Assembly: GCA_003194525.1 (NCBI GenBank)
Contig: NBIV01000254.1
Coordinates: forward strand, 50,164-114,163
Source: Gracilariopsis chorda
Taxonomy: Eukaryota; Rhodophyta; Florideophyceae; Gracilariales; Gracilariaceae
Direction: 5' to 3'
Length of the DNA stretch: 64,000 bases
In this document: in pieces, positions 10,545 through 64,000 of the stretch
How positions within the stretch are numbered: the first letter of the stretch is position 1
Layout of the letters: each line of letters starts with the position of its first letter
Notes under the pieces: generated by a model
Databases searched by the model: none
What the model was told of the DNA's origin: nothing
The model's input: only the letters and a program-made list of their open reading frames with translations
Program-made: the position numbers and the translations under genes

Positions 10545-12950
10545 CAAGGATTACTTTGCTACACTGGGGTTATTAGCAAGTTTCTATTCAGAAGTAGGAC
10601 AGCGAAAAGACTGCGTGTGGATGTCACCAAGGATCATATAAATTTCAATGAATGCTATTGGGCTTTCCAGTTCACCTGCTAAGTTTCAAAACGCCAGAGA
10701 AATTGTATTGACAAGGTTCAAATGGAGATTCGTATTGGTGTATCTAGATAATATACTCGTGTTTTACAACACCCTGCATAATGACATAACCCATGCGCGG
10801 AACGTCATGCGTTTTTGAAGAGATTCCGTAATTACTCTAAACTTCTAGAAGTGTAAAATATATGCGGAATAGTTCAAGTATCTTGAAAATACAATGCGCT
10901 CCAGACAGCTCTCGAGAGACGAGGTGAGAGGTACGTCGCTGAAGGAAGAACTCGAAACATCCGACTACGCAGACGAAACTTCAATCATGTCTCGGGCTTT
11001 GTAATTTATATCGTCGTTTTGTCCCGAACTTTGCGGAGCCTGCAATTCCTCTGAGTGCCCTCCTAAGATAGAGATAACTAGTTACACTGGAACCATTTTA
11101 GCAAACCGAAAGCGTCTGCCTTCAAGGACATCATCAACGCCCTAACGTCTCCGCCTATCGTACTGCTCTCAAGTTTTGGTCTACTTTATGAACTGGATAC
11201 AGACGCCACCGATAACCGGATTTATTGTCCCATATTTCAAGTGACCGAAGACAATGAATGATACCTAATCAAATAATTGCCTTTTATATTTAATGTGACC
11301 GAATGTTACATCTCGGATTCTGAGAAGCAGTGCCTCGCCGTCGTACGGGCGATTACCACTGTTAGGCCATAGTTCATGGGAGCTCAATTTGAAGAATATG
11401 CGAAGCACTTCTGTGTTTTTTGGCTCGTTGAGTGAGCTGGTCTTTCGACGACCCTCATGCATTGGCACCTCTGCCTCTCGGAATTAGATTTCGATTTACT
11501 CTACAAAAGAAGGGAACGCTTAAGACGGAAGCAGACGATTTATCCCGCATGTGAACCACTGCTGATGCATAACCCGTCGAAGATCTCGATGTACTGGTTT
11601 CGTGGTTGAAAATGATGCAAGGAGTACCTAGGATGTTTCAGACCATATGTGTGATGCTGTTCTCGCTTCTGAGTCTTCAGAACCCCGAGGGAAGGTTCTT
11701 TTACGCTCATTGCTCCCAAAGACTTGATTTAGAAAAAGCAATATGACCAGTTGTGTACACAGATTCGTGCTTGCCTAAATGGAGTATATGACTTAAGAAT
11801 CTGGGCAGAGGATCAGAGATATCTTCTACCGTTGTTTAGTTCTCCTCCCCCAATTGTGGTGGCCTATTTGGTACAGCAAAGAGAGATCCACCTCTCTCAT
11901 TACCTGAACATTGAAGCACATCCATGAAATATATAGAGTTATACCTCTATCAGAAGCAATTTGATATGCCCGACATGGCGTTCCATTGCTATGCACTTCA
12001 CCTTTCCTGTGTGTAATGGGCTAAGAACAAAGTGATCATACGGGAATATTACATAAAATTAACGCTGCTCCGAGCTTACGCTACGCTAGAATTTGTCGCC
12101 ACCGATATGGTGGACGAGTGGCTGCGAACGCCCCGCGAAAACCACTATTTCATTGTGGGAATGAAACGGTTTTCTGTATTCCCACAAATTTTCCCGCCAA
12201 AACGGATTACATCCGTAACGGTGGCACAGGACTTTGTCACCCACCGAGTATTCAATTATGTTCCACCAGTCAATTTACTATCCTGCTATGGTCCCCAATG
12301 TACGTCCAATTTCTTTGAAGATGTTAGTCGTAATACTGATGGTAGACATATGTTTTTCAGTACATATCAACCGCAGAGTAATGGAAAATTGGAGCGATTT
12401 ATCCGTACGATGCTTAACGCATTAGGCTCTTATGCTGCAGATAATCCAAAGGATTAGGAGCTTTGTTCTGGTGGGGCTACGTATGCATGCAATACCCCGC
12501 TACATCAAGTTACGTCGCTCTCATCTATTCAATTGGTGTTGTCGCGAAGTCCGCCCTCGGGGGGCTATCGAAGCTGAACTGACGATGTCGGAGCTCACTA
12601 CAACGAGGCTACACCGGACCAGCTGGAGGCACGGTGTAAAAAATATGTTACCGTTTGCACCGAAAGCTATGGGCGAAGCTCAACTTTCGTGAAGCGTTAC
12701 TCTGACGTCAAGTTGCGTCAAACGCTACCGCCGGAAAACACAAATGACTTTGTTTTCCTTCGTAAGGAGTACCATAATACGACAAAGAAAGGGCGTCATA
12801 ACGTTTCTTTAATCGTGAGCAGACACTAACGTGTGATATCTACTACAAACGACACAGTGGTATCGGACACCGACCAACAACACGAGCGGGTTCCAGTCGA
12901 TCGCATTACAATGTTTCCTAACCCTCTCCAAAACTCTTGGTACCGGGAAT
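10545..12950 (+). pseudogene. Gypsy element A: decayed RT, RNase H and integrase
   Basis: Read across frames, this follows B's pol in order. A WGY and QV segment occurs at about 10565. The RT block around 10690-10780 has RFKWRFVLVYLDNILVF against B's RFKWRSCLVYLDDIIIF, so the YLDD box is YLDN. NLYRRFVPNF is near 11010. RNase H remnants end near 11550 with the DDLSRM motif. HLSHYLNIEAH around 11895 is the integrase zinc-binding start. The integrase core lies at 12032-12457 (LEFVATDM, then YQPQSNGKLERFIRTMLNALGSYAADNPKD). The C-terminal linker includes NDFVFLRKEYHNT near 12750. Many stops and frameshifts make it non-functional. Confidence 0.8.
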
Positions 12951-15779
12951 ACCTTCAAAGGCATACTGGACTCATAAGATCAGTTCGAGGTTGATTCTCC
13001 ATCGTGCCTTCCCATCCTACCGCACTCAGATTGGAATTTATCGAGCCTATCGAGGGAATTAGACGTCCTTCTTCACCACGAATGCCCAAATACTCCAACT
13101 CCCTCAACTAAAATAAACCCCTTAACCCATCTTATTAGTTTCATAGCTACGTCATAAGAAGGAGCGGGAGCTTCAATCGCTGTCGACCTACCGGCGTTGC
13201 TCGTAGAAGCAGTTACAAAGTACCAGCGCTTTAATCGCAACTTGCTAGTTGTAGACGTTGGACCTCTCAGGAAATATGGGAGCCTGGTTAGGAAAAGTCC
13301 ATAAAGGGAAGACACCACTGTAAAATTGTCTGGCCGTTTGGCTCTCCCGTCGGGAATGGAACATCGCAATGGCAATACCACGCAAACCGTTGGTGCTGTG
13401 ATCAATGGCTAAGAGCGCCTAATGTTTGCTGACCATGACTTGAGTTATCCTGATGAGGACAAAGACCAGGACCCGGTGCACAACACGTGTTGATGTTTGT
13501 AATCTCAGCATAGCGGGAAGAATAGGGCTCTCGTGGAAAATCTAGAGGGGATATGAAGCTGAATCGTGCGCCACGACGTTTGAGAAGCATGAGCACACGT
13601 TCGTCACATGGCGCAGAACCCATATATGCATGTGGACGTAACACACTTGTAGCGTCACTTGGACACTGTGTTGCTGCAGTAACTTAAATTGTAACCGTGT
13701 ACACGACAACCAGTGACACCCATCTGTAAGGGTTAAACTGAAGTGATACCGGCACTCTGGGCGTCTAACGGCGATGGGCATCCAATGAAGATGCAGGACA
13801 CACGAACCGTAGCCGGGTCGATCTGCCTCCATGCTCAGAGAGTGTAGACCAGTTTCTGTTCTCCAAGTGGTAGTCCCGTCCTCGCAAAAGTTTAAAGAGG
13901 TTCTTGCTCCAAATCGTCATGGAAAACGAGTCCCGTCGATTGAATCGTTGGAATGATCCTGGCCCGAATGCGTTTTCCGAATGCTTGAACACAAGAAACC
14001 ATTACACCCAAAAGAGTTGTAGTCCACAAAATCTCCCGCAATTGGATAGCGACGGGGAGATCCGTTGCGAGGACTTTCTGGGCCTTGACCTCTGTTATCG
14101 CACGGAACTTAATGCCAGTTGACTTCATCAACTACATCTGAGATGTACATGGCCTCATCCACGTTGTCTTGGAGACCCAATGCAACTGACAGGATGAGAT
14201 GTTTGATGATGGTCCGAACCCTTGGCGGTAAGAACCAAAGACGGTAGCTGTGCTTGCCTTCCCAGTGGAAGAAAACCGCCACGCCGGTAGTCTACTCTGC
14301 GGTAACAAGACACCAGTGATATGAATTTGGATCAACAGAAGTGAAGTAAATTATGTAAGTCAAACACAGATGCAGTTCTAGGAAACGCAACTAGGGTACC
14401 TCAACATGACTCCAGCACTATGGTAACGCTGCAAAGCGACGCCTGAATGTTTGATAGAGATACATTTCGGTTTCCATATGGGTGTATGGAATCCCATGCC
14501 CGTGTTGGGAACTTGCCTTGCGCTCAAACCGAATTTTCTCGGATAAGGCCGCTTGCGTTTCTCAGCGTCGGATGTAGCCGTTCGTTCAATAAGTGGGAAA
14601 GCACGGAAATGTTTTGATAGTGCCGCATTTTAAAGCTCAAATCTTCGCAAGGTCTGCCTCGAATCTTTTCAAATAAGAGTACTGAGATGAACAGAACTGC
14701 CAATCATATGCTGTAAAGCATGAAGTTTCTCCAACATGAAACGCAGCGTGTAGTCACGCTTCACTAACACACTTAAATAAGCCAGAATCCACAACTCGAA
14801 AATTCGGCAAGAAGTAGGTCCGCTTTTGACAAATGAGAGTAGACAATTGACTAGTGCAAAACTGCAAATAAAATGAGTCCCTGATTCTAGCCGTTAAATG
14901 CAGGTTTTCTTTTTACACGCACGATATCAACCGCTGCTAACTACTGTATCATGGCTTCTCAATGCTTTCAAATAGACATATTACGAGAGAAGTGGCACTC
15001 AGGTAGTACCAAAATATCGTATGTTGTGCAGAACACTTAAGAGAAGTGACGTTTGATTCATTATTATCCTGAAATATTCGAATATCCTATAAAGCGATGC
15101 TATAAGGCTTTCTAATAATCTTTCAACTGTCGGGAAAATATCCTTGATCACCATAAGATGTGTTGTCCACGTTTTTGCACTTCATATTGATAAAGTGATT
15201 ATCCAAATACGACTTAAAAGAGGTCAGCATTGTAGTACAGTGAGTACTATGCATGCTCGTAAAGATGGGCTCTCACGGAAGATTCCTAACGGAGTACTCG
15301 TATTTTATAACTGGAGCCACCTGTCACACCACTCCAGAGGAATCGTTCCAGCGGACTATAATTCTACTAGGTAGAATATCCTAACTTAAATTTTTGTAGG
15401 GTAGAGTAGAAAGTTTCCGTCGAGGTCAGCTCGCGGCACTGTATAGAGTGCGCCGCTGGAAGCTCTTACTCCGGGGCAGTAAACCAAACACCCTGGAGGC
15501 TTGTTCTACTTCGTCTGGTTCAACCTCATGATACTCACCTTCAGGTACACACGTACGTCACGCTCTAGGTGTGGTTTCTAAGCCGCTGATACCCAGTGCT
15601 TCCTATAGCAGCGTCTGTAAAATTATCGTCCGCCCAGTGAACCCGCTCTCCGCTTGGTGCTTCCGGATCTCCTTTCAGGATTCCACCGGTCGTCGCTCCT
15701 ATATTAGAGAGACCATCTACTACTGAAACCCATCTGTTAGGCTCAATCTAAATGTTCTATTTGACGGACGTCGTGCTCA
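12951..15779. other. 2.8 kb without an assignable gene
   Basis: Short ORFs (60-110 codons) appear on both strands, with no domain I recognise. The 3' LTR of Gypsy A would be expected here. A few hairpin-like stretches (for example around 14470-14500) have the right texture, but no copy of another LTR in the window aligns convincingly. Confidence 0.35.
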
Positions 15780-17136: not shown

Positions 17137-17180
17137 AAGACGGGAAAACGACCGCGGACGCGGAGGGTTCCCAGACGAAA

Positions 17181-17276
17181 ATGGGTGATAAAAGCGCGTG
17201 CGCCGTCTCCGGTTCTCCGGTAATTTCCTCTGCATCAGAGTCACTAGCCTCTGATACCGCAGCCGTTGTTTCCTAG
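17181..17276 (+). pseudogene. Remnant of the antisense ORF in Gypsy B
   Basis: ATG at 17181 opens a 31-codon frame beginning MGDKS and including VSGSPV, matching the first residues of the 550-codon antisense ORF of element C (59269). It ends at TAG 17274-17276. The following bases (TTCTTTCCTGGCATAGCC) match C only near 61085-61100. B therefore lacks about 1.7 kb that in C holds nearly all of this ORF. The short frame itself is unlikely to be functional. Confidence 0.7.
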
Positions 17277-17443
17277 TTCTTCTTTCCTGGCATAGCCAGC
17301 AGTGTAGAATAGTGTTGTGGGGAGCTAGCTGCTCCCTTGAATAAACTTTCCCGTTTAGAACGGTGATTCTCGTTTGAGTTCCCCGTCTTCGACGGACCTT
17401 GCCTTGTTATCCTTTCCTATCGCCCTCTGTTCGCGCGGCAACA

Positions 17444-18214
17444 TTACCCAACTTGGGCATTTACCAGCGTGGCTGGAGCTGCAGTTCCCGTTTGACGGTG
17501 GTATCGCAGGACCTGCGACCGTGGGAGGTGTTCAATTGGCTCCCACGTATCCCCACTGGGGTCGTACCCGTACCAGTGGACGCGGTATTGTAGAATACCA
17601 TCCTGGTCCCAGGTGTGTCCGACAAGTCGGTCTACTACGAACTCTCGTTCGTAGACCTGCCGGCCGTGCCGGGTGGTGGTTGCACTTCCTTGCAGGGGCT
17701 GCCCGCTGTGCGGTATAATGTCCCTTAGCAGGGTGTTCGGCGATAACTCCGGCGTTGCCATGCGCTGTGATAGCGGCCGCTGCTCATGCGGGAAGATATC
17801 CCTCAAGAGGGTGTGTGGTGCCACGGTTTTCACCGTTAAGTCATTCCCCGTTGGGGCAGGTTCATTTCCTCTTTCGCGGTATTGCGGGCGAACCGCCAGT
17901 CGGCGGGGGACTTGGGCTCCACCTTCGCGGTTCAGCTCACGAAACGCGAGTTTGCGGGAAGATGACCGCTCCCGCGGGATCGGCATTTCCACAATCCCCT
18001 GGGGGGTCCTTTGCGACACGGTGATTGGGTGGCAAACCGCCTCCCTGCCAGGCGCACGAGCGCTCCGCACCATACGTTCCGGCGATGCCGTAGTGTCCCC
18101 GGCTACTGACGGGTTGCCTGGGGCTAACTCCGGTACACCGGTATTTTGGTCAAAATTCCCCTTCGGGGGGTGCCGGGCAGGTGCCGATGATACCCTTTTC
18201 AGGGGAGTTGCCAC
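17444..18214 (-). CDS. Gypsy B: C-terminal chromodomain ORF
   Basis: The 256-codon frame ends in a clear chromodomain in the last 80 residues: YEREFVVDRLVGH, then LQYRVHWYGYDPSGDTWEP and IEHL. Such domains, fused after the integrase in Gypsy chromoviruses, guide insertion by binding chromatin marks. The N-terminal 170 residues are Pro/Arg/Ser-rich linker shared with C. C has a longer open version (61251-62591); here a one-base deletion near 18440-18460 truncates it upstream. The frame differs from that of the integrase in both copies, so it is either a separate ORF or reached by frameshifting. Confidence 0.8.
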   Translation of the reverse strand: MATPLKRVSSAPARHPPKGNFDQNTGVPELAPGNPSVAGDTTASPERMVRSARAPGREAVCHPITVSQRTPQGIVEMPIPRERSSSRKLAFRELNREGGAQVPRRLAVRPQYRERGNEPAPTGNDLTVKTVAPHTLLRDIFPHEQRPLSQRMATPELSPNTLLRDIIPHSGQPLQGSATTTRHGRQVYEREFVVDRLVGHTWDQDGILQYRVHWYGYDPSGDTWEPIEHLPRSQVLRYHRQTGTAAPATLVNAQVG

Positions 18215-18517
18215 TAAGCGCGGTGCACCATCTCCATGAGGAGGAGCAGCGTCCGGTACGACCGGTTTCGAGCGTGCGATGGCGCGCGTTTTTCCTTAGT
18301 TCCTCGGTTCTTCGCCGCAGCGATGCGGGGGTTGGCGCAAATTATTCCCCGTAGCGGGGGCTTCGATTCCGTCAACAATGGGAGGCGTTTCCGATGCTTG
18401 CGAGCCAGGGCTTAAAGCTTCAACTGCGGCTTGGCTGCCTTTTTCCCCAAGAGGGGTGTGGGTATTTCCCTGTGAGGCCGGCGTATCTGGGCGCCCCTTC
18501 TCCGCAAGGCTCGGGTC

Positions 18518-21500
18518 TTATCGACCTGATTGAACCGCTTCCGCGGGGACTTCCGCCAACGGCGGCTTCGAGGCATCGGGCGATTGCCTTTCCGCTGCTG
18601 CGGTATTGGAGTGAGGCTTCTCGTTTTCCCATGACAAACGGTGTATTTGCCGCTTTTGCGGGGCCTGCGCGTCTGGTTCCTGTTGCACAGCACTGCCCGG
18701 GAACGGGGGATTAGTGTCGCGTGACATACTCCGTGCTCCAAGGTCAGTGTTCCGTATTTTACGGTGTGTTTCCCGTTGCGACGGTGATATCGTTCCTCGA
18801 AAACGAGTGTTCTCCTCCCCCTCCTTAGACGGAGCGGCGGGATAAGGGATAACATTCCCCGCCTGGCGGGTATAGATGCGCGCCAGTGGGGCAGACGTGG
18901 TAGGGGCGGGCGCTGAGGGGCCCGAATTACCCGGCTGAGCCGGTGAGTCCGACAGAGTCGGTAGGTCTGAGAGTCCCCGGCTGGGGTGTGGTAGTACCGT
19001 AGGTCTAGTACTCCCGGATGGTTCCAGTGTTGCAGAGTCCGTAGAAACGGGGTTGCCTGGATCCAGGACTACCTCTGACGAGGGAGGAGGGGCAAGGACA
19101 ACACGATCACGGGAAATCCGTTCGTGCGTGTCGCCCATCTCTACCACGACAGTGTCGGTGTTAACAGAGATGACCTTGAAGGGTCCATCCGCCACAGGCG
19201 AGAGTTTGTGACGCTTCTCTCGTTCCGGGTTGTAGTAATCCTTCCTGATGAAGACGTAGTTATTTGCCCGAATCGGGGGGGTCTTTCCTCGCAAGCGAGC
19301 GTCAAAATTCCGCTTGTAAGCGGCTTGGGCGCGTGCCATAGACTTCCGCGCAGCAGGGACCAGCTTGGAAAGCCATTGCTTCCATTGCTGCCGGTAGATA
19401 CCCACAGATGGGAAATTGTCCAAGGTAGCTTGGGGTTCCAGCGCCACAGGCGGGGGTGTTCTAGATAGAACCAACTCGAATGGCGAAACTCCGGTAGTCC
19501 GGTGTACCTGCATATTGCACGCGTAGGTTATCGCATCAGCGTAGAGATCCCAATTCTTTGGGTGGTCAGCGACGTAGGAACGTAACGCCGCGAGTAACGT
19601 CCGGTTAAACCGTTCAACTTGCCCATTACACTGGGGGTGGTAGGTAGTCGTGAACAAGTTCTTGACATCCAGGATGCGACAAACATCCTGGAAGAACTTG
19701 CTCACGAACTGTTTCCCGTTATCGGAGAGCACCTCCACAGGGGGACCGTAGACAAAAATCCAGTGCGTCACCAGAGCCTGGGCCACCGTGAGAGCGGTTA
19801 TCCTCCGAAGAGGGACAGTCCGTACCAGCTTAGAAAAGCGGTCGGTGATGACAAGTAGAAACTTGTTTCCACGTTTTGTGGTGAGTAGTGGTCCGAGAAG
19901 ATCAATTGCGATAAACTCGAGTGGCGCCCTTGCGGGGAATAGTTTCATCTTCTTCGCATTTTTGGCGAGTTTGACGCGATTCTTCGCGCATTCGCTACAA
20001 AACCGCACAGTTGCGTAGCAATCCACCGCCATTGCGGACCAATAGAAATCCCTTCGCAGGGTTAGGTAGAGTTTCCTCCCACCTGGGTGACCTCCAATGG
20101 GGGCATAGTGTGATAAATGTAACACCCGCGATTGCAGGGAATGTGGTACCACAATCTGTGGGCGGGCTTCGACCTTTCTTACGAGGTAGCCTTTGTGGTT
20201 TACCCCGAAAGGGAGATCTTCACCACTGTTGATACGGGCACGAATTCTCGTACAGAATGGGTCGCCAAATTGTTCTCGGATCATTTCTTCCGGTGATACC
20301 GGTACAAAGTTTCCCGGTAACGGGTTCTCAGATTCATCTCGCGATGCGAGTAGTTCGTCAAAATCAGCATCCTCGTCCCAGGTTTCTGGCCCAGCCTCGA
20401 CGGCATATTCCGGATCATCCGGGTCTATAGCCATGAAGCATGGGACTTCATCATCCTCCGTTGGGAGTGCTTCCCCATTTGTGGGTAACCGCGACAAAGT
20501 GTCGGCCTGGGTGTTCTGCGCACCCTTTTTATAAATGACTTGAAAGTCATATTCCGCGAGGCGGAGTCTCCAGCGCATGAGGCGTCCCGACGGGTCGGAG
20601 ATATTCATCAACCACCTTAATGAGGAATGATCCGTGTACACGGTGAAGTGAATTCCCATAAGGTAGGGGCGCAGAGTGGTCATCGCCCATACGACGGCGA
20701 GGCACTCTTTCTCCGATACGGATTAGTTCCGCTCATGAACATTGAGCGAGCGCGACCAATAACCAATTGGATGTCGTTCCCCCTCGGGGTAGGTTTGAAA
20801 AAGAGCACACTCGACTTGGTAGTCGCTCGAGTCCGTATCTACGGAGTATGGCAACCCAAGTTTTGGGAGATTTAGGATTGGTGCTGATGTGACAGCCTCC
20901 TTTAAGGAGTTGAAGGCTTCCGATTGCTCGGGGGTAAATGTTCCCAGTTTTGGGGGGTTCCCCTTTCGCAACAACGCGTTCAGGGGCGCCGCAGTATCCA
21001 AAAAGTTCGGGATAAACCGTCGATAGACGTTGACCAGCCCCAGAAAGGAGCGCAGTTCCGTTTGAGTACGGGGTTCTTTCGCCTCAACGAGGGATTTGAC
21101 TCGAGCTTTCTCGATCGCTAACCGTCCAGGACGGATAATGTGACCCAGATACTTCACAGTATCTGTGAAAAACTCGCATTTCCTCAACTTGAGGGTAATT
21201 CCCGCATCGCGGAGTACGGTCAGCACGTCTCGGACGTGAGTGAGATGGTCGTCCAACGAGTTGGAGAAGATGATAATATCGTCAAGGTAGACCAAACAAC
21301 TCCGCCACTTAAAGCGGTTGAGTAGAATATCTACTGCACGCTGAAAGGTGGCGGGGGCATTGGTTAACCCAAATGGCATCCGCTTGAAGCGGTACGTTCC
21401 TGCATGGGAGGTGAATGCGGTTTTGTCGCCATCCTCCTGTCTGACAGGTACTTGCCAATATCCCCAATTGGCATCAAGGGCCGTGAACACGGTGGCGTCT

Positions 21501-23005
21501 CCAAGGGAGTCAATGCACTCGTCCATACGAGGGATGGGGTACGTGTCCCTAACAGTCACGGCATTGAGCCGGCGGTAGTCGACACAGAACCTCCAGGTTC
21601 CGTCGGCCTTTAAAGCCAGTACAACTGGGCATGCCCAGTGTGATTGAGCGGGCTAAATCACACCTGCGCGGAGCATCTTGTCCACTTGGGACTGCTCCTC
21701 TTCCCGAGCTTTCGGACCTGCCCTGTAAGGGGGTTGTGCACCCGGTCGCGCACCGGGGATTAAATCGATCCGGTGTTCCGTTGCATTAATCTCGCCAAGC
21801 GATCCATCCCACATTGTGGTGAATTCCCGTAACATAGTACGGAGTTTGTCGCGGTGCGACTCTGGCACGTGGCTGAAGTCCAGCGCTTCAAGTGCTTTTT
21901 CCGGATCAATCCGTTCGTTGCTCGATGGAGCATTGTCCTGTGGAACAGGTGTGATTCGCAATTCCGAGTTACTCGGTATGTTCGACGCTGAAGTAGCGGT
22001 TTCCTCCCCCTCCTTAGACTTGACGTCTTCGGACGGCGGGGCGAACTCCTCAGATGAGGTGGTAACTCCGAGTACATCGGCGGCTGTCATCTTTGTTGGC
22101 AGCATTCCCATAGGATGGGGGGTTACACTCCCAATTACTTGGTGTTTGACCAGATACTAGGGGTGTTTGCCAAGGTTGGCAACCAATATCCGGAAAGGAA
22201 CATCCGGGGAAATGGAGACAGTTCCATTAGTCAGCGCCAGCTGGGATTTCTCGTACAACGAGGCGAGGGGTTGTATAACCCGAAGACCGTGTTGACGGGA
22301 ATTTACCTGCACCCAGACTTGGGACTCAGCCGGTATAGAAACCGAGGCAGCGACGCGGAGCTTGGTGGACTCGCGGGACGCGGGCGGTGGTTCCTGCGCA
22401 GCAGGGAGCGGAACTTGTTTCCGAGAGGACCGCTTTAGCGGGCGGCGAACAATCGGAACCGACGAACCGTCATCAAGTTCTACACCCCTGAGGCGGGGCC
22501 TGATTGCGTCGAAAAATCTGTCGCAGTAATCACATCCCAGTATGACTGGTGCTGCCAATGAACGGCAAACGATGAAGTCCAACTTCACCACAGAGGTACC
22601 AAGTCTCACGACGAGGTGCACTGTGCCCACCGTTTGTAACGGATTGTTGTTCGCATCCGAAATGTCGGGGACCGCGTCAGAGCGGATACGCGACCGCACA
22701 AGCGGGGGTAACAATGATTCCACGACAAAGTTGGGGCCTGCACCTGTATCCAGGACGGTGAGAAACCTCACCATAAACTGGGGGTCAAGGCCAAGGTCGG
22801 CATAGACCTTATAATTGCGCTTGGCCAAGACCAAGACTCTACCGGGAATCCGGGGATTTTTACTCCGTATCCACGGGCGACGCAACACACCGAGGTGCGC
22901 AGAGTCCGCGTCAGCGGTGTCTTTCCTCGAGAGGACTTTCACCGGGGAGCGAGGCGAGGACGCCTCGGGCGCCAACAGCCTCGTTTTTGAGGACGCCTCT
23001 CCCAA
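18518..23005 (-). pseudogene. Gypsy B pol: protease, RT, RNase H, integrase (three in-frame stops)
   Basis: One reading frame covers the whole segment, broken only by TAG 22157-22159, TAG 21653-21655 and TAA 20723-20725. Order: retropepsin with FLTVLDTGAG; RT with FCVDYRRLN, MPFGLTNAPATFQ and the catalytic YLDD; the tether YRRFIPNFL; RNase H with a TDSSDY Asp, a KEC Glu and TDHSSLRWL; integrase zinc finger (HYAPIGGH, CSEC); and a D,D35E core (IAIDLLGP, LSDNGKQF, then 35 residues to the Glu of QVERFNRT). A GPY-like segment (SPVADGPFKV) follows, then a long Pro-rich tail. The TAA replaces the Tyr codon usual in NYSVSEKE. The stop at 21653 replaces the residue before PAQSHW. It is inactive but barely decayed. 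Confidence 0.92.
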
Positions 23006-23022
23006 AGGGGAGACTCCCTCAG

Positions 23023-25196
23023 TTAGTTTTCCGCCTTCGGCGGTGGGTTGGTTTCCTCGACAACGAGTGCTTCATCCCGTTGACGGGGGTTTCTATCCGC
23101 ATAAGCGGGGGTTGCAACGGATGGTTGCGTGATCTCCCGAATCGGGGTGTATGAAGCTTGCCGCGCACGCGGGGTCTGTGGTAGGGCGTGAGAAAAGTCC
23201 GTTTTAGCACGGAGGTAGGAAGCCGTCGGGACGGAACGTTTCTCCTCTGGAGTGAGGGCCTCATAATTTGCCACCACCTTGGCCGTATCCTTCAGTGAAC
23301 AAATACACTGAGGAGAGGTATGGCCATGGGCGTAGCACAGGTGGCAAATGAGAGCCAGCACCGCGACACGCGGATTATTATTCCGAGTATCGGAGAAGCG
23401 AACCGCAGGGCGGGTGTCAGTCCATCCAGGCCGTTGATAACGGGATTGACCGTTTGAAAACGGGAGTCGTTGGGGTTGAACCCGACTGTTACCACCGTAT
23501 AGAACGGGATCTTCTGTTCCCATATCATGGGTCATCTCCGTCGTTGACGGTAACTCACTGGTGGGTATCGACACACCATCCCCCTGCGCTAAATGCACGG
23601 TATCAAATCCCTGTCCAGGGTTCCCATCCGCGGTGAGCGGGAGAGAGGAAGCTTCGCTTTCCAGCAACAACGCCTTGGCGGATTTAGACCGATTGTTCGG
23701 AGTTCTTGCACGAAGTGCATCTCCTTCCGCTCGAGCGTGTTGGACCAGCTCGAGGTAGGTGATCCTTCGCTTGTCCTCCCGATAACGGGTAACTAAACTC
23801 CGGATTGCCGGGTCAAGACCATCAATGAACATGGTACTGCGCTCCCCAGCGGGGTATACGTTACCACATCTGTGGAAAGCCTTGTTAAGGCGCACCGAGT
23901 AATCGGTGTCGGTCTCTCCAGCACGCTGGCGTGTATCTCGCAAAGCGAGGATAGCCTGCTGAATAGCGGTGTTGGTGGCGTAGGAGCGCAGAAGATACTA
24001 CACAGCCTCCGGCCAGCAAGTAACTCCTCCCTCGGAGGCGCGAGAAGATCCTCTGACAGAGGTGTATTGGTCCTCCGCCACTCCCCGTAAGAAATACGGT
24101 AAAGCCAAATAGGCTTGTCCCTAATTCATACCGAGGATATCGGCCTCCGCTACAAAGCGGGATAGGAAATCCAGTACTAGGACTGGGTCCTCTCCAGTAA
24201 AATTCTGGTTGCGGAGCGAGAGCAGCATTCGCTTAATGCATTCTCGCACCTTTCTCGTACCACGGGGCGTACGTCCAAGTGACGAATCTTCGAGCCGGTA
24301 GTACCAGTATGATAAAAGCTTCCGGTAATCCGGGTTTGTCGGTTTCAATTCCCGGAGACCGGGGTGTCTTCTCCCCTTCTGGCGGGTTCGGACCACACCT
24401 TCAGTGGCCGATGACCGCTTCGAGCGGGAGGAGTAGCCTCGCTTCTCGTCCTCCGAGTCGGACTCCGAGGAGGTCGAGCTAACCGAATGGTTTCGGGATG
24501 ATTCCGATGATTTCGAAGAATCGGAGTCCAAATACTTTCGGTGGTGTTTCCGTCGATGACGGCGTTTCTTCTTCCCAGCAAGCTGGTCGTTGTGCGATGC
24601 CCTGTTTACCGGATCATCCGGGGATGGTTTGTCCATGAGGACGAACTGCTCCAGCGTCTCCAGGCGGGCATCAATCCGATCAAATCGGGCTTCAACTCCT
24701 TCGATGAAAGGGCGGGTTGTCCCAAACTCTCCAACACGGAGTTGACGTCAGACCGTAAAATACGGAGTTCCTCGGCGACCTCCTTTACGGGGGTTGCCGA
24801 GACCACCTCTTGAAGGGATTTTAGTTCCCCTACAACGGTGCCATGGGCGGTCCACAGAGCGCGGACCTGGGATTCCAGGGAAGTCCCCTGGGGGGTGTTA
24901 TCGCCCGTTCCACGGGGGTTTGAAGCCACGACAGCGGGAGCGGCCCGGGGTGCCTGGGGCACTGCTGCAACAGCCGGAGTCGATGCTGCATTCCCCTGCG
25001 GGGGTGATAACGAGGGCAAAAGGAGGTTCCGGGGTTCCCGGTCGGGGGTATCATTCCGCGATGAAGCGGCGCCAGTACGGCTGGAACTTGTCCGTATAGG
25101 GATACGGGGTACGAACCGAACTTTGGAGGTGTCCGCGTTGTAGCGGGAGCCACTACGCGTAACCACTGGCTCCGCGTCGGAGGGATTTCTCGACAT
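23023..25196 (-). pseudogene. Gypsy B gag with CCHC zinc knuckle (frameshift and two TAG stops)
   Basis: The start at 25196 (MSRNPSD) lies about 100 bases inside the 5' LTR. An N-terminal Pro/Ala region leads to a predicted coiled-coil stretch (about 24640-24720), reached only after a frameshift near 24720-24740. An acidic Ser-rich and Lys-rich linker follows (24470-24600), then a capsid-like helical region (TGEDPVLVLDFLSRF; NKAFHRCGNVY). In-frame TAG codons lie at 24121-24123 and 23998-24000. In element A the second position reads CAC (His) and the flanking codons align, so these look like nonsense mutations. The nucleocapsid knuckle is C-X2-C-X4-H-X4-C (CHLC through SPQC) around 23340. Gag ends at TAA 23023-23025 in a frame overlapping pol by -1. 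Confidence 0.88.
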
Positions 25197-25280
25197 GATA
25201 AAATACCGTTACGACGGGAAACGATCACGGAACTTCCGGTAAATAAAAACAAACCTCGTAAGAGGGAAAACAAAAACCCA

Positions 25281-25298
25281 TTCTAAGTCAGGAGACCA
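25281..25298 (-). other. Candidate primer binding site of Gypsy B
   Basis: Three bases inside the 5' LTR, the element-sense strand reads TGGTCTCCTGACTTAGAA; its complement ends in ACCA as a tRNA 3' end would. It is not the common initiator-Met primer site and I cannot name the tRNA. Confidence 0.55.
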
Positions 25299-25301
25299 AT
25301 T

Positions 25302-26125
25302 TGTGGTGCAACGCCCCAAAGGGGAAAAACACCGAAAGACGTTCGGGATCTTCCTCTCACGAGGTGAACCCAGTTGGGTAGAGCCCTCCCAGAGGTGTCA
25401 CGGCGAAGCCGGTTTGTAAGACCAGGGACACCTGTCGCGCCTCGCGCAGGGAGGTGAAGGCGAAGAATCGATATCCGCGTGAGCGGGGTGTGGTCCTCAC
25501 TAGAGGTATGTTTCCACGTAAGTGGGGGTGTGTGAGCGGATGCGCACACGAGGGCCGCGGATAGCGGGAGGTGCTACCCTAAAAAGGGGAAAAGGAAGGG
25601 CGAAGAGGAGGAAGAGAGGGCGAAGTGAGTCGCGAGAGCGACGGGGACGAACGGCGATGCCGGTAACAATATCCCTATACAGGGCGAAACACCAATGCAA
25701 TTGGAACAATTATACTCCCAGTGATGGGTCCCTTTAGATGTGCAAGGGGGTTAGATGTCCCGTGGTTTACGGCGTTTCCCTCCAAGGAGGAGTAGAGTAC
25801 GCGCGCAAGCGGCAACAACTAGAGCCAATTCCCCAGGTTGGGGTCCCTTGTTGGGGAAAGTTTACTGGTGCGACAGCAGTGCGCCGTCGCACTAAGTACT
25901 AGCTTCCCAGAAATGGGTGTGAAAATAATAAATATTATTAACTAAAATACTCCACATTTCGTGGCAACATCCACTACTGTGGCCAACCGCCAATTGACCC
26001 AAAACCGTGTCCCACGTGTCCATATCCCCCATAGTGGGGCGTAATTCATATACACACTACACAACCGATAATATCGGGAAAGCGTTCAAGTACCCAGAAT
26101 CCCTGCCTGAGGGCGTTGCACTTCA
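25302..26125 (-). repeat. 5' LTR of Gypsy B
   Basis: It is nearly identical to 16301-17125, with the same hairpin set. Some substitutions damage stems (for example one arm of the 10-bp stem near 25870 reads GCGACAGC rather than GCGACGGC). It is bounded by GGCAT at 26126-26130. As the upstream LTR it should hold the promoter; no TATA box is obvious apart from AT-rich sequence around 25920-25950. Confidence 0.92.
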
Positions 26126-55267: not shown

Positions 55268-56404
55268 ATGGTACCATTTGCTTTCATTCTCTCACTTCTC
55301 GCACTTTTTGCCTGTGCCGTATCCATCCCCTTCAGCATTCACCAGGATCTGCCCACCAATGACACCTCTGAAGACTGTTCAATCAACAGCGTTTGTTTTG
55401 TTCTGGATGAAAGCGGGTCTATCCAGTCTTCTGAATATATTGTAGAGCAGCAGTTTGTAATATCGGTTTCGCGTGTGATCTCTTCTCGTACTAATGGAAC
55501 TCTGTACTCAGCATACGGTTTCGCTTCCTCTGCTTCAGTCATCCAGGCATCTACTTCTAATCTGGAGGGTACCTTCGTTCCGGTAATCAACCAATCTCAA
55601 CAATCTGGCGGATCTACTAACATGTACGCCGGGCTGAATGCTTGCTTCAATGAGGTGAACGGAAATGCGGGAAATCGGGTAATTGTGCTTATCACAGACG
55701 GTGGTGATAATGGCAACCCTCTCGCTGAAGCACTCGCGCCTACGGTCAAGGCCGCTGGTGTTGCCATTGTAACAATCGGAGTGGGATCTGGAGTAGATGA
55801 AGACTACCTGAGATCCTTGGCTACTACGCCGGCCTTCTTCATTCCATCCACGTTCTCATCGCTTCCGGCTGATGTGGTTCGGGTCGCAGAGTCCTCTTGT
55901 GATGTTGTGGAAGTTTCTCCAGTGCCAGATATAACGCCCACACCTATCCCAGATCCCTGCGAGGAGGCATATGACACATGCGATTTTGCTTTTATGAATG
56001 AGCTCAGTGTCCCCACCTTCGCCGTCGATGTAGCCCCTGACGTTCCATTCACCCCGAAAATTGTTTCTCGCAATCCCCTCGAGCTCGTGGGAGTGCTGAA
56101 CACAAACGATATCGTCGTGGAATTTATCGAAGATGATGGTACAGTGACACCAATCACATCGGAGCCCGCCATCCAATCTTTTTCAGCCACTCAGTTTAAA
56201 CCTATCACATTAACCGGCACATCGCGTTCTGGTATTGCACATGAGTCCTTTCAAGCTGATCAACTAAGTCTTGCACGTGACCGTTGCGTACGCGTGTTCG
56301 TGTCATCCTTCCAGCTTCTAGATGTGACGCCTCCGAATAATGTTATTGGAAACCCTGCGGTGACTCGTGCAGATAACAAGTGCATGGTGTTCAGAACGAG
56401 TTAA
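55268..56404 (+). CDS. Secreted von Willebrand factor A domain protein
   Basis: The intronless frame has 378 codons. A hydrophobic N-terminus (MVPFAFILSLLALFACAVS) is a likely signal peptide. The vWA fold spans about residues 38-210 with a complete metal-ion-dependent adhesion site: DESGS (47-51), Thr in GGSTNMY (117) and Asp in LITDGG (144). A Pro/Thr linker (PVPDITPTPIPDP) follows, then a 150-residue C-terminal domain of unknown type containing four cysteines. Such proteins usually bind ligands or matrix outside the cell. This is the only gene here that looks like an undamaged host gene; its surroundings are transposon-poor for 3 kb upstream. No neighbour suggests a pathway. The ATG at 55268 gives the signal peptide directly. 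Confidence 0.85.
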   Translation: MVPFAFILSLLALFACAVSIPFSIHQDLPTNDTSEDCSINSVCFVLDESGSIQSSEYIVEQQFVISVSRVISSRTNGTLYSAYGFASSASVIQASTSNLEGTFVPVINQSQQSGGSTNMYAGLNACFNEVNGNAGNRVIVLITDGGDNGNPLAEALAPTVKAAGVAIVTIGVGSGVDEDYLRSLATTPAFFIPSTFSSLPADVVRVAESSCDVVEVSPVPDITPTPIPDPCEEAYDTCDFAFMNELSVPTFAVDVAPDVPFTPKIVSRNPLELVGVLNTNDIVVEFIEDDGTVTPITSEPAIQSFSATQFKPITLTGTSRSGIAHESFQADQLSLARDRCVRVFVSSFQLLDVTPPNNVIGNPAVTRADNKCMVFRTS

Positions 56405-58407: not shown

Positions 58408-59212
58408 TGTGGTGCAATGCCCCAAAGTGGAAAAACACCGAAAGACGTCCGGGATCTTCCTCTCACGAGGTGAACCCAGTTGGGTAGAGCCCTCCCAGAG
58501 GTGTCACGGCGAAGCCGGTTTGTAAGACCAGGGACACCTGTCGCGACTCGCGCAGGGAGGTGAAGGCGAAGAATCGGTATCCGCGTGAGCGGGGTGTGAT
58601 CCTCAGTAGAGGTATGTTTCCACGTAAGTGGGGGTGTGTGAGCGGATGCGCACACGAGGGCCGCGGATAGCGGGAGGTGCTACCCTAAAAAGGGGAAAGA
58701 GGAAGGACGAGTGGGTCGCGAGAGCGACGAACAAATACGGCGATGCCGGTAACAATAACCCTATACAGGGCGAAACACCAAGACACTTGGAACAATTAGT
58801 ACTCCCAATGATGGGTCTCCTTTAGATGTGCAAGGGGGGTGAACTTCCGTACACTACGGTGCTTCCCTCCAAGGAGGAGTTGAGAACACGCGGAGGCGGT
58901 AAAGCTCAGAGCCAATTCCCCAGGTTGGGGTCCCTTGTTGGGGAAGGTTTACTGGTGCGACGGCAGTGCGCCGTCGCACTAAGTACTAGCTTCCCAGAAA
59001 TGGGTGTGAAAATAATAAATAAAATTAACTAAAATACTCCACATTCCGTGGCAACATCCACTACTGTGGCCAACCGCCAATTGACCCAAAACCGTGTCCC
59101 ACGTGTCCATACCCACCGTAGTGGGGCGTAGTTCATATACACACTACACAACCGATAATATCGGGAAAACAATCAAGTACCAAGAATCCCTCCCTGAGGG
59201 CGTTGCACTTCA
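58408..59212 (-). repeat. 3' LTR of Gypsy C
   Basis: It is 805 bp, TGTGGTGCAATGCCCC to GCGTTGCACTTCA, followed by a C run (polypurine tract in element sense). Most hairpins of the B LTR are kept. Two have changed on both arms: CCAAG-ACA-CTTGG (58778-58790) where B has CCAAT-GCA-ATTGG, and CCGTA-CAC-TACGG (58847-58859) where B has CCGT-GGTTT-ACGG. Confidence 0.92.
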
Positions 59213-59268
59213 TATCCCCCCCCTAAGACGGGAAAACGACCGCGGACGCGGAGGATTCCCAGACGAAA

Positions 59269-60921
59269 ATGGGTGATAAAAGCAAGTGCTTTGTCTCCGG
59301 TTCTCCGGTAAATTCCTCTGCACCAGAGTCCTCAAGTGCACAAACGACAACAACAGCCACCCTCGACAAGGGAGAAATGAACGACGACAACAACATCAAC
59401 AACCACAGCCAACCTCCGAGACTTCTCGGGCGATACACCACCGGTTTCCGGTCAGTTCCCCTGCCTCAGGGCGATCGAAATCCGGTACAACCGGGAAATA
59501 CGGCTGCTGAAGCCGACCATCCCTTCGCACTACCACCTTCGGTGGTGTCCTCCGGAACCACTCCGGTGTCCAACTGGCCAACTTACAACACCCTGGTGGG
59601 GCTCAACCCGATGAATCGGAATCACGCGTCGCGCCTGCGCCTTGCCCCGTGGTTTCACCCGGTCGCTGTCCTCAATGAGGGGTTGGTCACCGCTTATGCG
59701 GATGGTTCAGACACCCTTCCGGGGGAACTGCCCAGAGCAGTCACCACATCGTGGGATTGGCGTCACCGGATTGCGATTCCGCGTCACCACCTCCGAAGAA
59801 ACTCGGGCGAGACCGTCGCTGCGGCGCAGACCGCGCTGACGCGCATGGCGTACCAACGGCAGAGCCGGGCTCCGTTCGATGTACCGGTCCCACCGGGGTT
59901 TGGCTTCGACATTAGCTACTTCCGCACTCGCGGGGAGATTGGGTACGGCGAGAACCTGTTCCGCCTCGAGACCCTCGCTTGGAGGAATTTCCCCGCAGCG
60001 CGGCAAGAGGCCCTTTGCTGGGAGCGACCGATTATTCGGGCGGAGTTCAGGTACCTTCCCCGGCAATACCGGTCCAACTTTCTCCAAAACTTCATCCGCT
60101 ACGAGCGGCGTTGGCAATCCCGATTCGGGTACTTTATCCCGTATCAGAACGTGGAGATAGAGCGGATTGCGCCGCCTTACCGACTAGGTCGGTATGTAGC
60201 ACTCCCCGAGTGGTGGCGCTTCCATGAAGCCTGCCGGGGGTGCTACGTAGAACTTCCGCCGGTACTTACGTACCTCGGTTCGCTGCTCATGCAGGATCCC
60301 CGGTCGGGGTTGTGGTCCGTAGTGGTTACGGAGTGGGCGGCCCGCAATGCGGCTTATATCCTCAACGAGGCGTACGACCAGTATCGTCTCTGGTTCCTTC
60401 AACCGCGCGTGCGGGCAGCGATCCGAAACCTGGATCTTCGCATCCCCCTTGGGGGCCAGGCCAACAATGAAGAGGTCCTCCAATTACTTGGGTACATCGA
60501 CAGCGTTAGCTGGAGTGAGGTCCCGCTGGAGCAAAGCGGTCGTCTGGATGGCGGCAGCGGTAACACCGGTGGCCCGGGACTGGGTAGAAACACCGCCCTT
60601 GCGGGTGATTTTATCTACTTCGACCCCTGGGAGTTCCGGGAAATTTCCTCCGAGGAGGCGCGCGAACTTCGCGATGCGCCCCGGCATGTGCCGGAAGACC
60701 ACCCGGTGGGGTACGTCGATTCTGACAATTACTACCGCGCATACGGCGGGGATGACCCAATGGTCGATAACGATCCGGAAGAGCCCGGGGAGATGGACGT
60801 AGAGGACACCGGCGCTAGCGCGGAAGCTTCCCCAGAGGGGGTACCTCCGGCCGAGCCGGCTGCTGACCCTTCGGCGGCGAGTGCCGGACCTTCTATCCCC
60901 AGCGGGGGTAACGGCGAATGA
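59269..60921 (+). CDS. Intact antisense ORF of Gypsy C, unknown function
   Basis: This 550-codon frame runs opposite to gag-pol, between the 3' LTR and the chromodomain ORF. Its ATG is 57 bases inside the LTR, so an LTR promoter firing inward on the plus strand would transcribe it. The N-terminal 50 residues are Ser/Thr-rich and low-complexity. A long central region (about 70-420) is rich in aromatic and Arg residues, with blocks such as WDWRHRIAIPRHH, FLQNFIRYERRWQSRFGYF and YVALPEWWRF. The C-terminus (about 490-550) is acidic, then Pro/Ala. I see no signal peptide, membrane segment, zinc motif or known enzyme signature. It is uninterrupted although pol of the same copy is broken. Antisense extra ORFs are known in some plant Gypsy elements, but I do not recognise this sequence. 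Confidence 0.7.
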   Translation: MGDKSKCFVSGSPVNSSAPESSSAQTTTTATLDKGEMNDDNNINNHSQPPRLLGRYTTGFRSVPLPQGDRNPVQPGNTAAEADHPFALPPSVVSSGTTPVSNWPTYNTLVGLNPMNRNHASRLRLAPWFHPVAVLNEGLVTAYADGSDTLPGELPRAVTTSWDWRHRIAIPRHHLRRNSGETVAAAQTALTRMAYQRQSRAPFDVPVPPGFGFDISYFRTRGEIGYGENLFRLETLAWRNFPAARQEALCWERPIIRAEFRYLPRQYRSNFLQNFIRYERRWQSRFGYFIPYQNVEIERIAPPYRLGRYVALPEWWRFHEACRGCYVELPPVLTYLGSLLMQDPRSGLWSVVVTEWAARNAAYILNEAYDQYRLWFLQPRVRAAIRNLDLRIPLGGQANNEEVLQLLGYIDSVSWSEVPLEQSGRLDGGSGNTGGPGLGRNTALAGDFIYFDPWEFREISSEEARELRDAPRHVPEDHPVGYVDSDNYYRAYGGDDPMVDNDPEEPGEMDVEDTGASAEASPEGVPPAEPAADPSAASAGPSIPSGGNGE

Positions 60922-61250: not shown

Positions 61251-62591
61251 TTACCCAACTTGGGCATTAACCAGCGTGGCTGGGGCTGCAGTTCCCGTTT
61301 GACGGTGGTATCGCACGATCTGCGACCGTGGGAGGTGTTCAATTGGCTCCCACGTATCCCCACTGGGGTCGTACCCGTACCAGCGGACGCGGTATTGTAG
61401 AATACCATCCTGGTCCCAGGTGTGTCCGACAAGTCGGTCTACTACGAACTCTCGTTCGTAGACCTGCCGGCCGTGCCGGGTGGTGGTTGTACTCCCTTGC
61501 GAGGGTTGTCCGCGGTGCGGTATAATGTCCCTTAGCAGGGTGTTCGGCGATAACTCCGACGTTGCCGTGCGCTGTCCTAGTGGCCGCTGCTCATGCGGGA
61601 AAATATCCCTCAAGAGGGTATGTGGTGTCACGGTTTTCCCCGGCAAGTCATTCCCCATTGGGGTGTCGTTGTTCCCGTCTTCACGGTAGGCCAGGCGAAC
61701 CGCCAACCGGCGGGGGACTTGAACTCCGTGTTCGCGGTTGAACTCACGAACCGCGAGTTTGCGGGAAGATGACCGCTCCTGCGGAATCGGCGTTTCCACG
61801 ATCCCCTGGGGGGTCCCGTGCGACACGGTGGTTGGATGGCAAACCGCCTCCCTGCCAGGCGCACGAGCGCTCTGCACCGTACGTTCCGGCGGCGCCGTGG
61901 TGTCCCCGGCTACTGGGGGGTTGCCTAAGGCTAACTCCGGTACACCGGTATTTTGGTCAAAATTCCCCTTTGGGGGGTGCCGGGCAGGTGCCGATGACAC
62001 CCTTTTCAGGGGCCTGGCCGCTAAGTGCGGTGCACCGTCTCCATGAGGAGGAGCAGCGTCCGGTACGACCGGTTTCGAGCGTGCGATGGCGCGCGTTTTT
62101 CCCGAGTTCCTCGGTTCTTCGCCGCAGCGTTGCGGTAGTTGGCGCAAATTATTCCCCGGAACGGGGGCTTCGATTCCGTCTGCGACGGGGAGCGTTTCCG
62201 AGCGCTGCGCGCCAGGGCCTGAAGCTTCGGATGCGGCTTGGCTACCCTTTTCCCCGATAGGGGTGTGGGGTATTTCCCAGCGGCGCTGGTGTATCTGGGC
62301 GCCTCTTCTCCGCGGGGCGCGGGTCTGAGCGACCTGATTGAACCGCTTCCGCGGGGACTTCCGCCAATGGCGGCTTTGAGGCATCTCCCTGCTCAGGGGA
62401 TTGAGGGCGATTGTCGCCGTACTCCCGTATCGGGGATCCTTCCCTGACAGGGGTGTGCGGTAGCTGCGTTTCAGCTTCCCGTGTAACACGGTGTATTTGC
62501 CGCCTTTGCGGGACCTGCGCGTCTGGTTCCTGTTGCACAGCGCTGCCCGAGGACGGGGGATTAGTGTCGCGTGAGATACTCCGTGCTCCAC
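61251..62591 (-). CDS. Gypsy C: linker and chromodomain ORF
   Basis: The 446-codon frame is Arg/Pro-rich over its first 350 residues and ends in a chromodomain: YEREFVVDRLVGH, LQYRVRWYGYDPSGDTWEP, IEHLPRSQIVRYH. It is the longer counterpart of B 17444-18214. It overlaps the tail of the integrase frame (to 62242) by about 350 bases in another frame, and the same overlap exists in B. The M at 62591 is not necessarily the real start; the frame is open a little further upstream. Role by family: targeting integration to chromatin. Confidence 0.78.
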   Translation of the reverse strand: MEHGVSHATLIPRPRAALCNRNQTRRSRKGGKYTVLHGKLKRSYRTPLSGKDPRYGSTATIALNPLSREMPQSRHWRKSPRKRFNQVAQTRAPRRRGAQIHQRRWEIPHTPIGEKGSQAASEASGPGAQRSETLPVADGIEAPVPGNNLRQLPQRCGEEPRNSGKTRAIARSKPVVPDAAPPHGDGAPHLAARPLKRVSSAPARHPPKGNFDQNTGVPELALGNPPVAGDTTAPPERTVQSARAPGREAVCHPTTVSHGTPQGIVETPIPQERSSSRKLAVREFNREHGVQVPRRLAVRLAYREDGNNDTPMGNDLPGKTVTPHTLLRDIFPHEQRPLGQRTATSELSPNTLLRDIIPHRGQPSQGSTTTTRHGRQVYEREFVVDRLVGHTWDQDGILQYRVRWYGYDPSGDTWEPIEHLPRSQIVRYHRQTGTAAPATLVNAQVG

Positions 62592-63995
62592 GGTCAGTTG
62601 TCCGTATGGTACGGCGTGTTTCCCGTTGCGACGGCGACCTCATTCCTCGAAAACGAGTGTTCTCCTCCCCCTCCTGAGACGGAGCGGCGGGATAAGGGAT
62701 AACATGCCCCGCCTGGCGGGTGTAGATTCGCGCCATAGGGGCGGGCACAGAGAGGCCCGAATTACCCGGCTGAGCCGGTGAGTCCCGACAGGGTCGGTAG
62801 GTCTGAGAGTCCCCGGGAGGGGTGTGGTAGCACGGTAGGCCGTCTCACCACCGATGTATCGGATGCAGAGCCATATTCCAGCGTAGGGTCCAGCGTAGCT
62901 GGTGCAGCCTGAGTCGAGGGTGGCGGAGCTAGCACGATGCGATCGCGAGATAACCGCTCATGCGCGTCACCCATTTCCACAACCACTGTGTCCGTCGTGA
63001 CGGAGATAACCTTGAAAGGACCATCCGCCACAGGCGAGAGCTTATGGTGCTTCTCCCTTTCAGGGTTGTAGTACTCCTTGCGGACGAATACGAAGTCCCC
63101 GGAGTTGATCTGTTCCGGTTTGCCTCCTCGCAAGCGAGCATCGAAATTCCGTTTGTAGACGGCTTGGGCGTGGTCCATCGCCTTCCGCGCTGCGGGTACC
63201 AGCTTGGTCAGCCATGCTTTCCACTTCTGGCGGTAATCCTTCACAGAAGGAACGCGTCCAACGTAGGTTGGGATTCCAACGCCATTGGCGGGGGTGTCCG
63301 TGAAAGGACCAACTCGAAAGGGGATATTCCGGTAGTCCGGTGTACCTGCGTATTGTACGCAAAGGTCACGGCATCCGTGTAGATATCCCAAGTCTTGGGG
63401 TGGTCAGCCGTGTAAGCACGGAGAGCTGCGAGCATTGTCCGGTTGAAACGCTCGACCTGCCCATTAGACTGGGGATGATACGTGGTCGTGAAGAGATTCT
63501 TCACGTCCAGTATCCGACAGACGTCCTGGAAAAATCGCGATGCGAACTGTTTTCCCGTTGTCGGAAAGTAGCTCCAAAGGAGGTCCGTAGGCAAACACCC
63601 AATGCCGCACAAAGGCGTGGAGCGACCGTGTAGGCGGTAATCCTCTTTAGAGGACTGTCCGAACTAATTTCGAGAACCTGTCCGTAATAACGAGTAGGAA
63701 CTTGTTGCCTCTCCTGGTAGAGAGCAATGGTCCGAGAATGTCAATTGCGACAAACTCGAGCAGCGCCCTGGCGGGGAATAGCTTCATCCGTTTGGAGTGC
63801 TTCCGGAGTTTGACCCGGTTCTTCGCGCATTGCGTGCAAAACCGCACCGTTAGCGTAGCAATCAACCGCCATGGCGGGCCAGTAGAAATCCCTGCGAAAG
63901 GGTTAGATAAAGCTTCCTCCCACCGGAGTGTCCCCCGAGTTTCGGGTAATGCGAGAGGTGCAATATCCGCTTCTGTAGCGTGTGCGGTACCACAA
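62242..63995 (-). pseudogene. Gypsy C integrase and pol tail, frameshifted
   Basis: Fragments in three frames follow B. The zinc-binding part (HLSHYPKLGGH, then FCTQCAKNR) is followed by the core IAIDILGP-type segment. GKQFASRFFQDVC and YHPQSNGQVERFNRTMLAAL follow after one extra A near 63550. SPVADGPFKVISV and the Pro-rich tail are reached after shifts near 63250 and 62790. The D,D35E residues are individually present, but the reading frame is broken at least four times. Confidence 0.85.
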
Positions 63996-64000
63996 CTTGT

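What the first reader, a model, noticed from the sequence alone, without database searches (positions are those of the whole stretch)
59269..60921. A 550-codon intact ORF antisense to gag-pol in a Gypsy element
The ORF starts 57 bp inside the LTR, is open for its full length, has a protein-like composition and no recognisable domain. In the same element integrase is broken by at least four frameshifts. An intact antisense ORF in a decaying element suggests either separate selection or a function expressed independently of pol. Antisense accessory ORFs are rare in Gypsy elements and this one is unlike any I know.
Basis: partly seen in the sequence, partly recalled or inferred. Interest (0 to 1): 0.88.

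Follow-up and report, generated by a model that had tools for sequence, protein, structure and literature searches.

The report
Conserved antisense gene in algal retrotransposons
The reading frame is a real protein gene carried backwards behind the usual genes of a group of retrotransposons in a red alga, kept by selection although some element lineages have thrown it out and still spread, and its predicted shape matched no solved protein structure.

Summary
The ORF is real and more than chance, but needs correction: it is convergent with pol (tail to tail), does not overlap gag-pol, and starts 56 bp inside the inner edge of the 3' LTR. The window copy is slightly damaged: 15 of 22 fetched copies read 595 aa; this one reads 550 because of a late frameshift. 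In this genome (Gracilariopsis chorda, inferred) 66 of 79 scored copies have no internal stop. Between subfamilies dN/dS is 0.33, near gag and RT; the five other frames hold many stops. Seven of seven divergent families fetched (35-54% identity) share the layout. No Pfam or PDB sequence match; a confident core model (pTM 0.85) has no PDB fold match. Lineages that deleted the gene have spread, two such copies beside an open, pol-sized frame, so it acts in trans or is dispensable. Antisense ORFs at this place are known in plant and fungal elements; this is a separate protein family in red-algal chromodomain elements. Transcription and function were not testable.

The parts
58408..59212 (-). 3' LTR of the element (pol sense is the minus strand); begins TG and ends CA in both readings
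   Evidence: 98% identical to the LTR pair of the C8 copy; edges read from the sequence
59213..59268 (.). 56 bp between LTR and start codon; holds the polypurine tract (a C run on the plus strand) directly beside the LTR
   Evidence: the naming as polypurine tract rests on its place and composition
59269..60921 (+). antisense accessory ORF (aORF) as it reads in the window, 550 aa
60899..61057 (+). C-terminal part of the aORF in the next frame (conserved short motif), cut off here by a late one-base frameshift
   Evidence: 96% identical to residues 544-595 of the C8 aORF; end point by alignment with other copies
61254..61826 (-). C-terminal end of pol with chromodomain (PF00385)
62987..63435 (-). 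integrase C-terminal part with SH3-like domain, in two frames
63445..63999 (-). end of RNase H region and integrase, broken by several single-base indels, running to the contig end
16301..26125 (-). second element of the same family, complete with LTRs 16301-17125 and 25302-26125 and a 5-bp target-site duplication, in which the aORF is deleted
17181..17276 (+). 31-codon stub of the deleted aORF in that second element
13974..14576 (-). decayed fragment of a distant aORF (28-40% identity to members), facing a Gypsy relic
11097..12856 (+). old Gypsy RT-RNase H-integrase relic, convergent with the fragment above

Best explanation
The ORF is an accessory gene of a group of chromodomain-bearing Ty3/Gypsy retrotransposons in gracilarialean red algae, lying between pol and the 3' LTR and read from the other strand. 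Shown by sequence: it codes for a protein; the protein is under purifying selection in the lineages that carry it; it has diverged together with the end of pol over deep distances; and element lineages that deleted it have spread. Inferred: it is transcribed from an antisense promoter in or beside the 3' LTR, independently of the genomic RNA. Inferred: the protein acts in trans, so that copies without the gene can use protein made by intact copies. Inferred with least support: it is a regulator that helps the element in the nucleus (transcription, escape from silencing, or integration) rather than a particle component.
For: 66 of 79 scored copies without internal stop. dN/dS 0.333 between subfamilies; shared variants 53 synonymous to 47 non-synonymous, singletons 88 to 193 (Fisher P 1.7e-4). 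In the same copies gag 0.26, PR-RT 0.33, aORF 0.30. Other frames full of stops. 35 of 40 DNA-chosen copies keep the exact ORF length, gag 38 of 40. Seven of seven divergent families fetched have it convergent with a chromodomain; protein distances of aORF and chromodomain part correlate over eight families (Mantel r 0.63, P 0.0002). 58 of 79 aORF places have a convergent chromodomain hit 336-350 bp away in the capped list. Deletion lineages: 21 of 40 scored places span the same deletion junction, the window's own copy included, and 16 a related one; 2 of the 7 such places whose chromodomain was scored lie beside a 1875-aa open frame. Core pI 9.15, tail pI 4.05; no membrane-like stretch in the window protein.
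Against: No transcript was seen. Lineages without the gene have spread, so it may be dispensable rather than used in trans. Purifying selection is weaker than on RNase H and integrase (dN/dS 0.11 and 0.17, at much greater dS). No basic nuclear-signal-like cluster was found in the window protein and in only 5 of 9 relatives looked at. Nothing tested speaks directly for a nuclear or regulatory role. A polypurine tract close before the start codon was seen in only 2 of 7 divergent families (for others the fetched stretch was short or the distance larger). The fetched copies were not a random sample.
Confidence: 0.55

Rival explanations
1. Self-limiting factor: the protein damps transposition (copy-number control), and lineages that delete it gain a short-term burst.
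For: Deletion lineages have spread, two such copies beside an open pol-sized frame.
Against: Selection within element lineages would have to favour a restrainer over deep divergence; the gene is kept in all seven divergent families fetched.
Confidence: 0.13
2. Particle or structural component (a Gag-like or Env-like accessory) supplied in trans.
For: Abundant folded core; deletion derivatives could be packaged with help.
Against: The element has its own gag of 594 aa with a zinc-knuckle-like motif (motif recalled); no membrane-like stretch in the window protein; no fold match to viral models for the full model.
Confidence: 0.13
3. Passenger gene captured from the host, kept for a host-like function.
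For: None direct; capture is known in other elements (PMC7264820, passages).
Against: In the capped genome searches the matches form repeat families; no Pfam family is recognised. A single-copy host gene was not searched for exhaustively.
Confidence: 0.08
4. The antisense RNA, not the protein, is what matters (double-stranded RNA with the genomic transcript).
For: Named as a possibility for plant antisense ORFs (PMC7264820, passages).
Against: Selection acts on the amino-acid sequence; an RNA role could exist in addition.
Confidence: 0.03
5. By-product: the frame is open by chance or because an overlapping frame is under selection.
For: One minus frame also shows low dN/dS (0.363).
Against: That frame's third positions coincide with those of the aORF; it holds 17-22 stops in each of 22 copies and 7-28 in the seven divergent stretches, where the aORF frame has none. 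Pol ends outside the aORF.
Confidence: 0.02

Closest known systems
Antisense additional ORFs between pol and 3' LTR (aORF-3R): maize Grande gene23, rice RIRE2, Silene Retand, Phaseolus PvRetro13, Botrytis Boty
   Same: Place, orientation, presence in most copies of a family, selection like other element genes (PMC7264820 and PMC11963269, passages seen).
   Different: No match to the Retand TRP28 domain PF04195 at E 0.5 or less in any of 18 members; here the element carries a chromodomain and the host is a red alga. Sequence comparison with gene23, RIRE2, PvRetro13 and Boty proteins was not made beyond the Pfam and database searches.
Antisense genes of HTLV-type retroviruses (HBZ, APH-2)
   Same: Antisense transcription from the 3' LTR and a regulatory protein (described in the passages seen); position is comparable.
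   Different: Works-like only: other element class; no sequence comparison was made; no transcript shown here.
VANC anti-silencing proteins of VANDAL transposons
   Same: Possible functional analogy only: an element-encoded protein acting in trans (recalled; only a search listing was seen).
   Different: DNA transposons; no sequence comparison was made; nothing here shows anti-silencing.

Membership tests
Ty3/Gypsy chromodomain element (chromovirus) | RT of Ty3 type, order PR-RT-RNase H-integrase | tested here: met
   RVT_1, RT_RNaseH, Integrase_H2C2 and rve in this order in the C8 copy; best solved match is the Ty3 RT. PR seen only as a DTG motif by eye (motif recalled).
Ty3/Gypsy chromodomain element (chromovirus) | Chromodomain at the integrase C-terminus | tested here: met
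   PF00385, E 8.7e-11 in the window and 2.6e-11 in C8, above its cut-off
Ty3/Gypsy chromodomain element (chromovirus) | Paired LTRs with TG...CA and target-site duplication | tested here: met
   C8: LTRs 99.6% identical, ACATG on both sides; window element 16301-26125: 98.5%, GGCAT on both sides. For the finding's own element only one LTR is in the contig.
Ty3/Gypsy chromodomain element (chromovirus) | RT phylogeny within a chromovirus clade | not tested
   No tree with named clades was built
Antisense additional ORF of LTR retrotransposons (aORF-3R) | Lies between pol and 3' LTR, opposite strand | tested here: met
   Window, C8 and 7 of 7 divergent families as to orientation beside the chromodomain; the LTR beside it was seen for family-1 copies, in the divergent ones only indicated in two
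Antisense additional ORF of LTR retrotransposons (aORF-3R) | Present and conserved in most copies of a family | tested here: met
   66 of 79 scored copies open, selection; but deletion lineages exist and the share of all copies is unknown because lists are capped
Antisense additional ORF of LTR retrotransposons (aORF-3R) | Transcribed in antisense from its own promoter | not testable with these tools
   No RNA data held
Retand TRP28 protein | PF04195 domain | tested here: not met
   Not among Pfam matches at E 0.5 or less for 18 members
Env-like protein | Membrane-spanning segment or signal peptide | tested here: not met
   Highest 19-residue hydropathy 0.88 in the window protein; 0.91-1.86 in nine relatives, peaks inside the core (a simple scale, no dedicated predictor)

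The most novel reading that the evidence does not exclude
A protein family whose fold is not yet among solved structures serves as a trans-acting antisense accessory factor of red-algal chromodomain retrotransposons, and full elements are parasitised by lineages that deleted this one gene but kept pol: autonomous and cheating retrotransposons that differ by a single accessory gene.
Probability: 0.3. Interest if true: 0.78.

Novelty: new variant of a known kind. Interest (0 to 1): 0.6.

Why it matters
Antisense accessory genes of LTR retrotransposons are described mainly in plants and have no established function (PMC7264820, passages). Here is one in a red alga, in chromodomain elements, with clear purifying selection, a confident but unmatched predicted fold, and natural deletion lineages in the same genome. 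That makes the question what such genes do, and whether in cis or in trans, testable by comparing elements of one family with and without the gene.

Tried and rejected
No relative came from: Pfam (a few chance-level matches, best E 0.079), NCBIfam, PDB sequences, the PDB second look with the full model and with the core, PDB Foldseek with the core (two matches, best E 7.4) and viral models with the full model. PDB Foldseek with the full model never ran. A viral-contig scan was not possible because the alignment had no conserved stretch. Chance, overlap constraint and RNA-only function were considered and rejected (see rivals). The argument 'broken integrase beside an intact ORF shows separate selection' was dropped because the breaks crowd at a contig end. 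Literature: searches showed no paper on an antisense ORF in red-algal retrotransposons in their listings; this is not proof of absence. Limits: dN/dS rests on 22 of the 79 listed copies, namely the top 8 and the last 14 of that list, which is itself ranked by full-length protein hits and capped (79 scored of 1820 candidates); the DNA-chosen list has 40 of 665 candidates. An earlier count said 14 of 22 intact; the output gives 15 intact, 6 with stops and 1 frameshifted, used here. P0009 was left out of alignments A4 and A5 as a poor fragment. In the first family alignment distant loci entered only with their matched ranges.

Full report
What is there. The window ends at the end of a contig of a 91-Mb genome. 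P0004, named BWQ96_10156 of Gracilariopsis chorda on a 70,517-bp contig, matches contig C355 at 99% over residues 88-565, and C355 is 70,517 bp long; P0002 (BWQ96_03215) is found at 100% for residues 1-491. I take the genome to be G. chorda, a red alga. The last 5.6 kb of the window hold the 3' part of a Gypsy element whose pol runs on the minus strand: the end of the RNase H region and integrase, a chromodomain (PF00385), then the finding's ORF on the plus strand, then the 3' LTR at 58408-59212. A relative on contig C8 with both LTRs (99.6% identical, 5-bp target-site duplication) shows the plan: LTR, gag of 594 aa, RT-RNase H-integrase, chromodomain, convergent aORF of 595 aa, LTR. The best solved match of its RT is that of Ty3.

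Is the frame a gene. A protein search of the genome scored 79 of 1820 first-look candidates; 66 of these 79 have no internal stop. Of 22 copies fetched, 15 read 595 aa, 6 have internal stops and the window copy has one late frameshift. The five other frames hold many stops in each of the 22 copies and in seven divergent stretches. dN/dS between the two subfamilies is 0.333. Variants shared by two or more copies are 53 synonymous and 47 non-synonymous, singletons 88 and 193 (Fisher P 1.7e-4): the lineages that spread are constrained, single copies decay nearly freely. Comparing C8 with the other subfamily, dN/dS is 0.26 for gag, 0.33 for PR-RT, 0.11 for RNase H-integrase, 0.17 for the integrase C-terminal part, 0.54 for the chromodomain end and 0.30 for the aORF, with 11 to 14 copies each. 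Against 13 copies of the other subfamily the aORF has 0.043 substitutions per site and no indel in 23.2 kb aligned; the spacer between aORF and pol has 0.155 and 10.5 frame-breaking indels per kb, the LTR 0.097 and 4.9, the chromodomain part 0.071 and none. Those copies were found by full-length protein hits, which favours unbroken frames. In a list chosen by DNA alone, 35 of 40 copies keep the exact length of 1788 bases and 5, the window's among them, differ by one; for gag 38 of 40 keep theirs.

How deep. Searches with distant members found further families in the same genome (capped lists). Seven loci were fetched, picked by me to span the divergence and not at random; in 7 of 7 the aORF (35-54% identical to C8) is convergent with a chromodomain. 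Over these and C8, protein distances of aORF and chromodomain part correlate (Mantel r 0.63, P 0.0002). A pyrimidine tract begins 33 bp (L037) and 55 bp (L034) before the start codon, against 54 in C8; in L035 it is farther away, and in the other four it was not seen or not assessable in the fetched stretch. The window itself holds a second, decayed case: a fragment at 13974-14576 (-) facing an RT-integrase relic at 11097-12856 (+).

Lineages without the gene. The window also holds an element of the same family at 16301-26125 (LTRs 98.5% identical, target-site duplication GGCAT) in which the aORF is deleted except for a 31-codon stub. A DNA search with the region across the deletion scored 40 of 945 candidates: 21 places span the junction (the window's own included; 19 over the whole query or all but its last 5 bases, 2 in part), 16 carry a related junction in two adjoining pieces, and 3 match on one side only. 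Deletion derivatives have thus spread. For 7 of these places the adjoining chromodomain was among the 150 rows; 2 of the 7 (C299, C159) lie in open frames of 1875 aa, the size of an unbroken pol in this family, and 5 in shorter ones. So the gene is not needed in cis for movement, yet selection keeps it in the lineages that have it. Use in trans explains both; dispensability with a mild benefit, or self-limitation, are rivals.

Mechanism. Most likely an antisense accessory gene, expressed from the 3' LTR or its edge and acting in trans. The nuclear, regulatory role is a guess by analogy with plant antisense ORFs: nuclear localisation and an own promoter are reported for Grande gene23 (PMC7264820, passages), and DNA binding is proposed for the Retand TRP28 protein (PMC11963269, passages). 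Expression, location and activity were not testable here.

Known or new. The arrangement is a known kind. The protein family, the red-algal host and the chromodomain element appear to be new to it, as far as the searches named under Tried and rejected show; hence 'new variant of a known kind'.

Noticed in passing
L015/L016 against L019-L032, RNase H to integrase: The two subfamilies are mosaic: dS is 0.63-0.80 in RNase H-integrase but 0.05-0.11 in gag, RT, chromodomain end and aORF, as if this cassette had been exchanged by recombination between element lineages.
   Followed up: partly
window 16301-26125: A complete family member that lost the aORF by deletion, with a 5-bp target-site duplication; further copies with this or a related junction lie elsewhere in the genome.
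   Followed up: yes
window 11097-14576: Relic of a distant Gypsy family with its own decayed convergent aORF fragment.
   Followed up: partly
window 60.9-64.0 kb and L013: Single-base indels crowd toward contig ends in copies that are otherwise about 99% identical to C8; probably assembly errors, so frame counts near contig ends should be treated with care.
   Followed up: partly
G000:C672, C80, C926, C534 and five places with a 627-aa open frame: Several copies share an aORF one base shorter, and five have a longer open frame (627 aa; three of the four are among them), which suggests a subfamily with an altered C-terminus.
   Followed up: no
L035, about 112 bp before the first in-frame ATG: A TATA-box-like TATAAATAG on the aORF strand inside the internal region; a hint at an own promoter in that family.
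   Followed up: no
window 55268-56404 (+): A 378-aa ORF with a von Willebrand factor A domain (PF00092, E 1.6e-17), probably a host gene for a secreted or surface protein.
   Followed up: no
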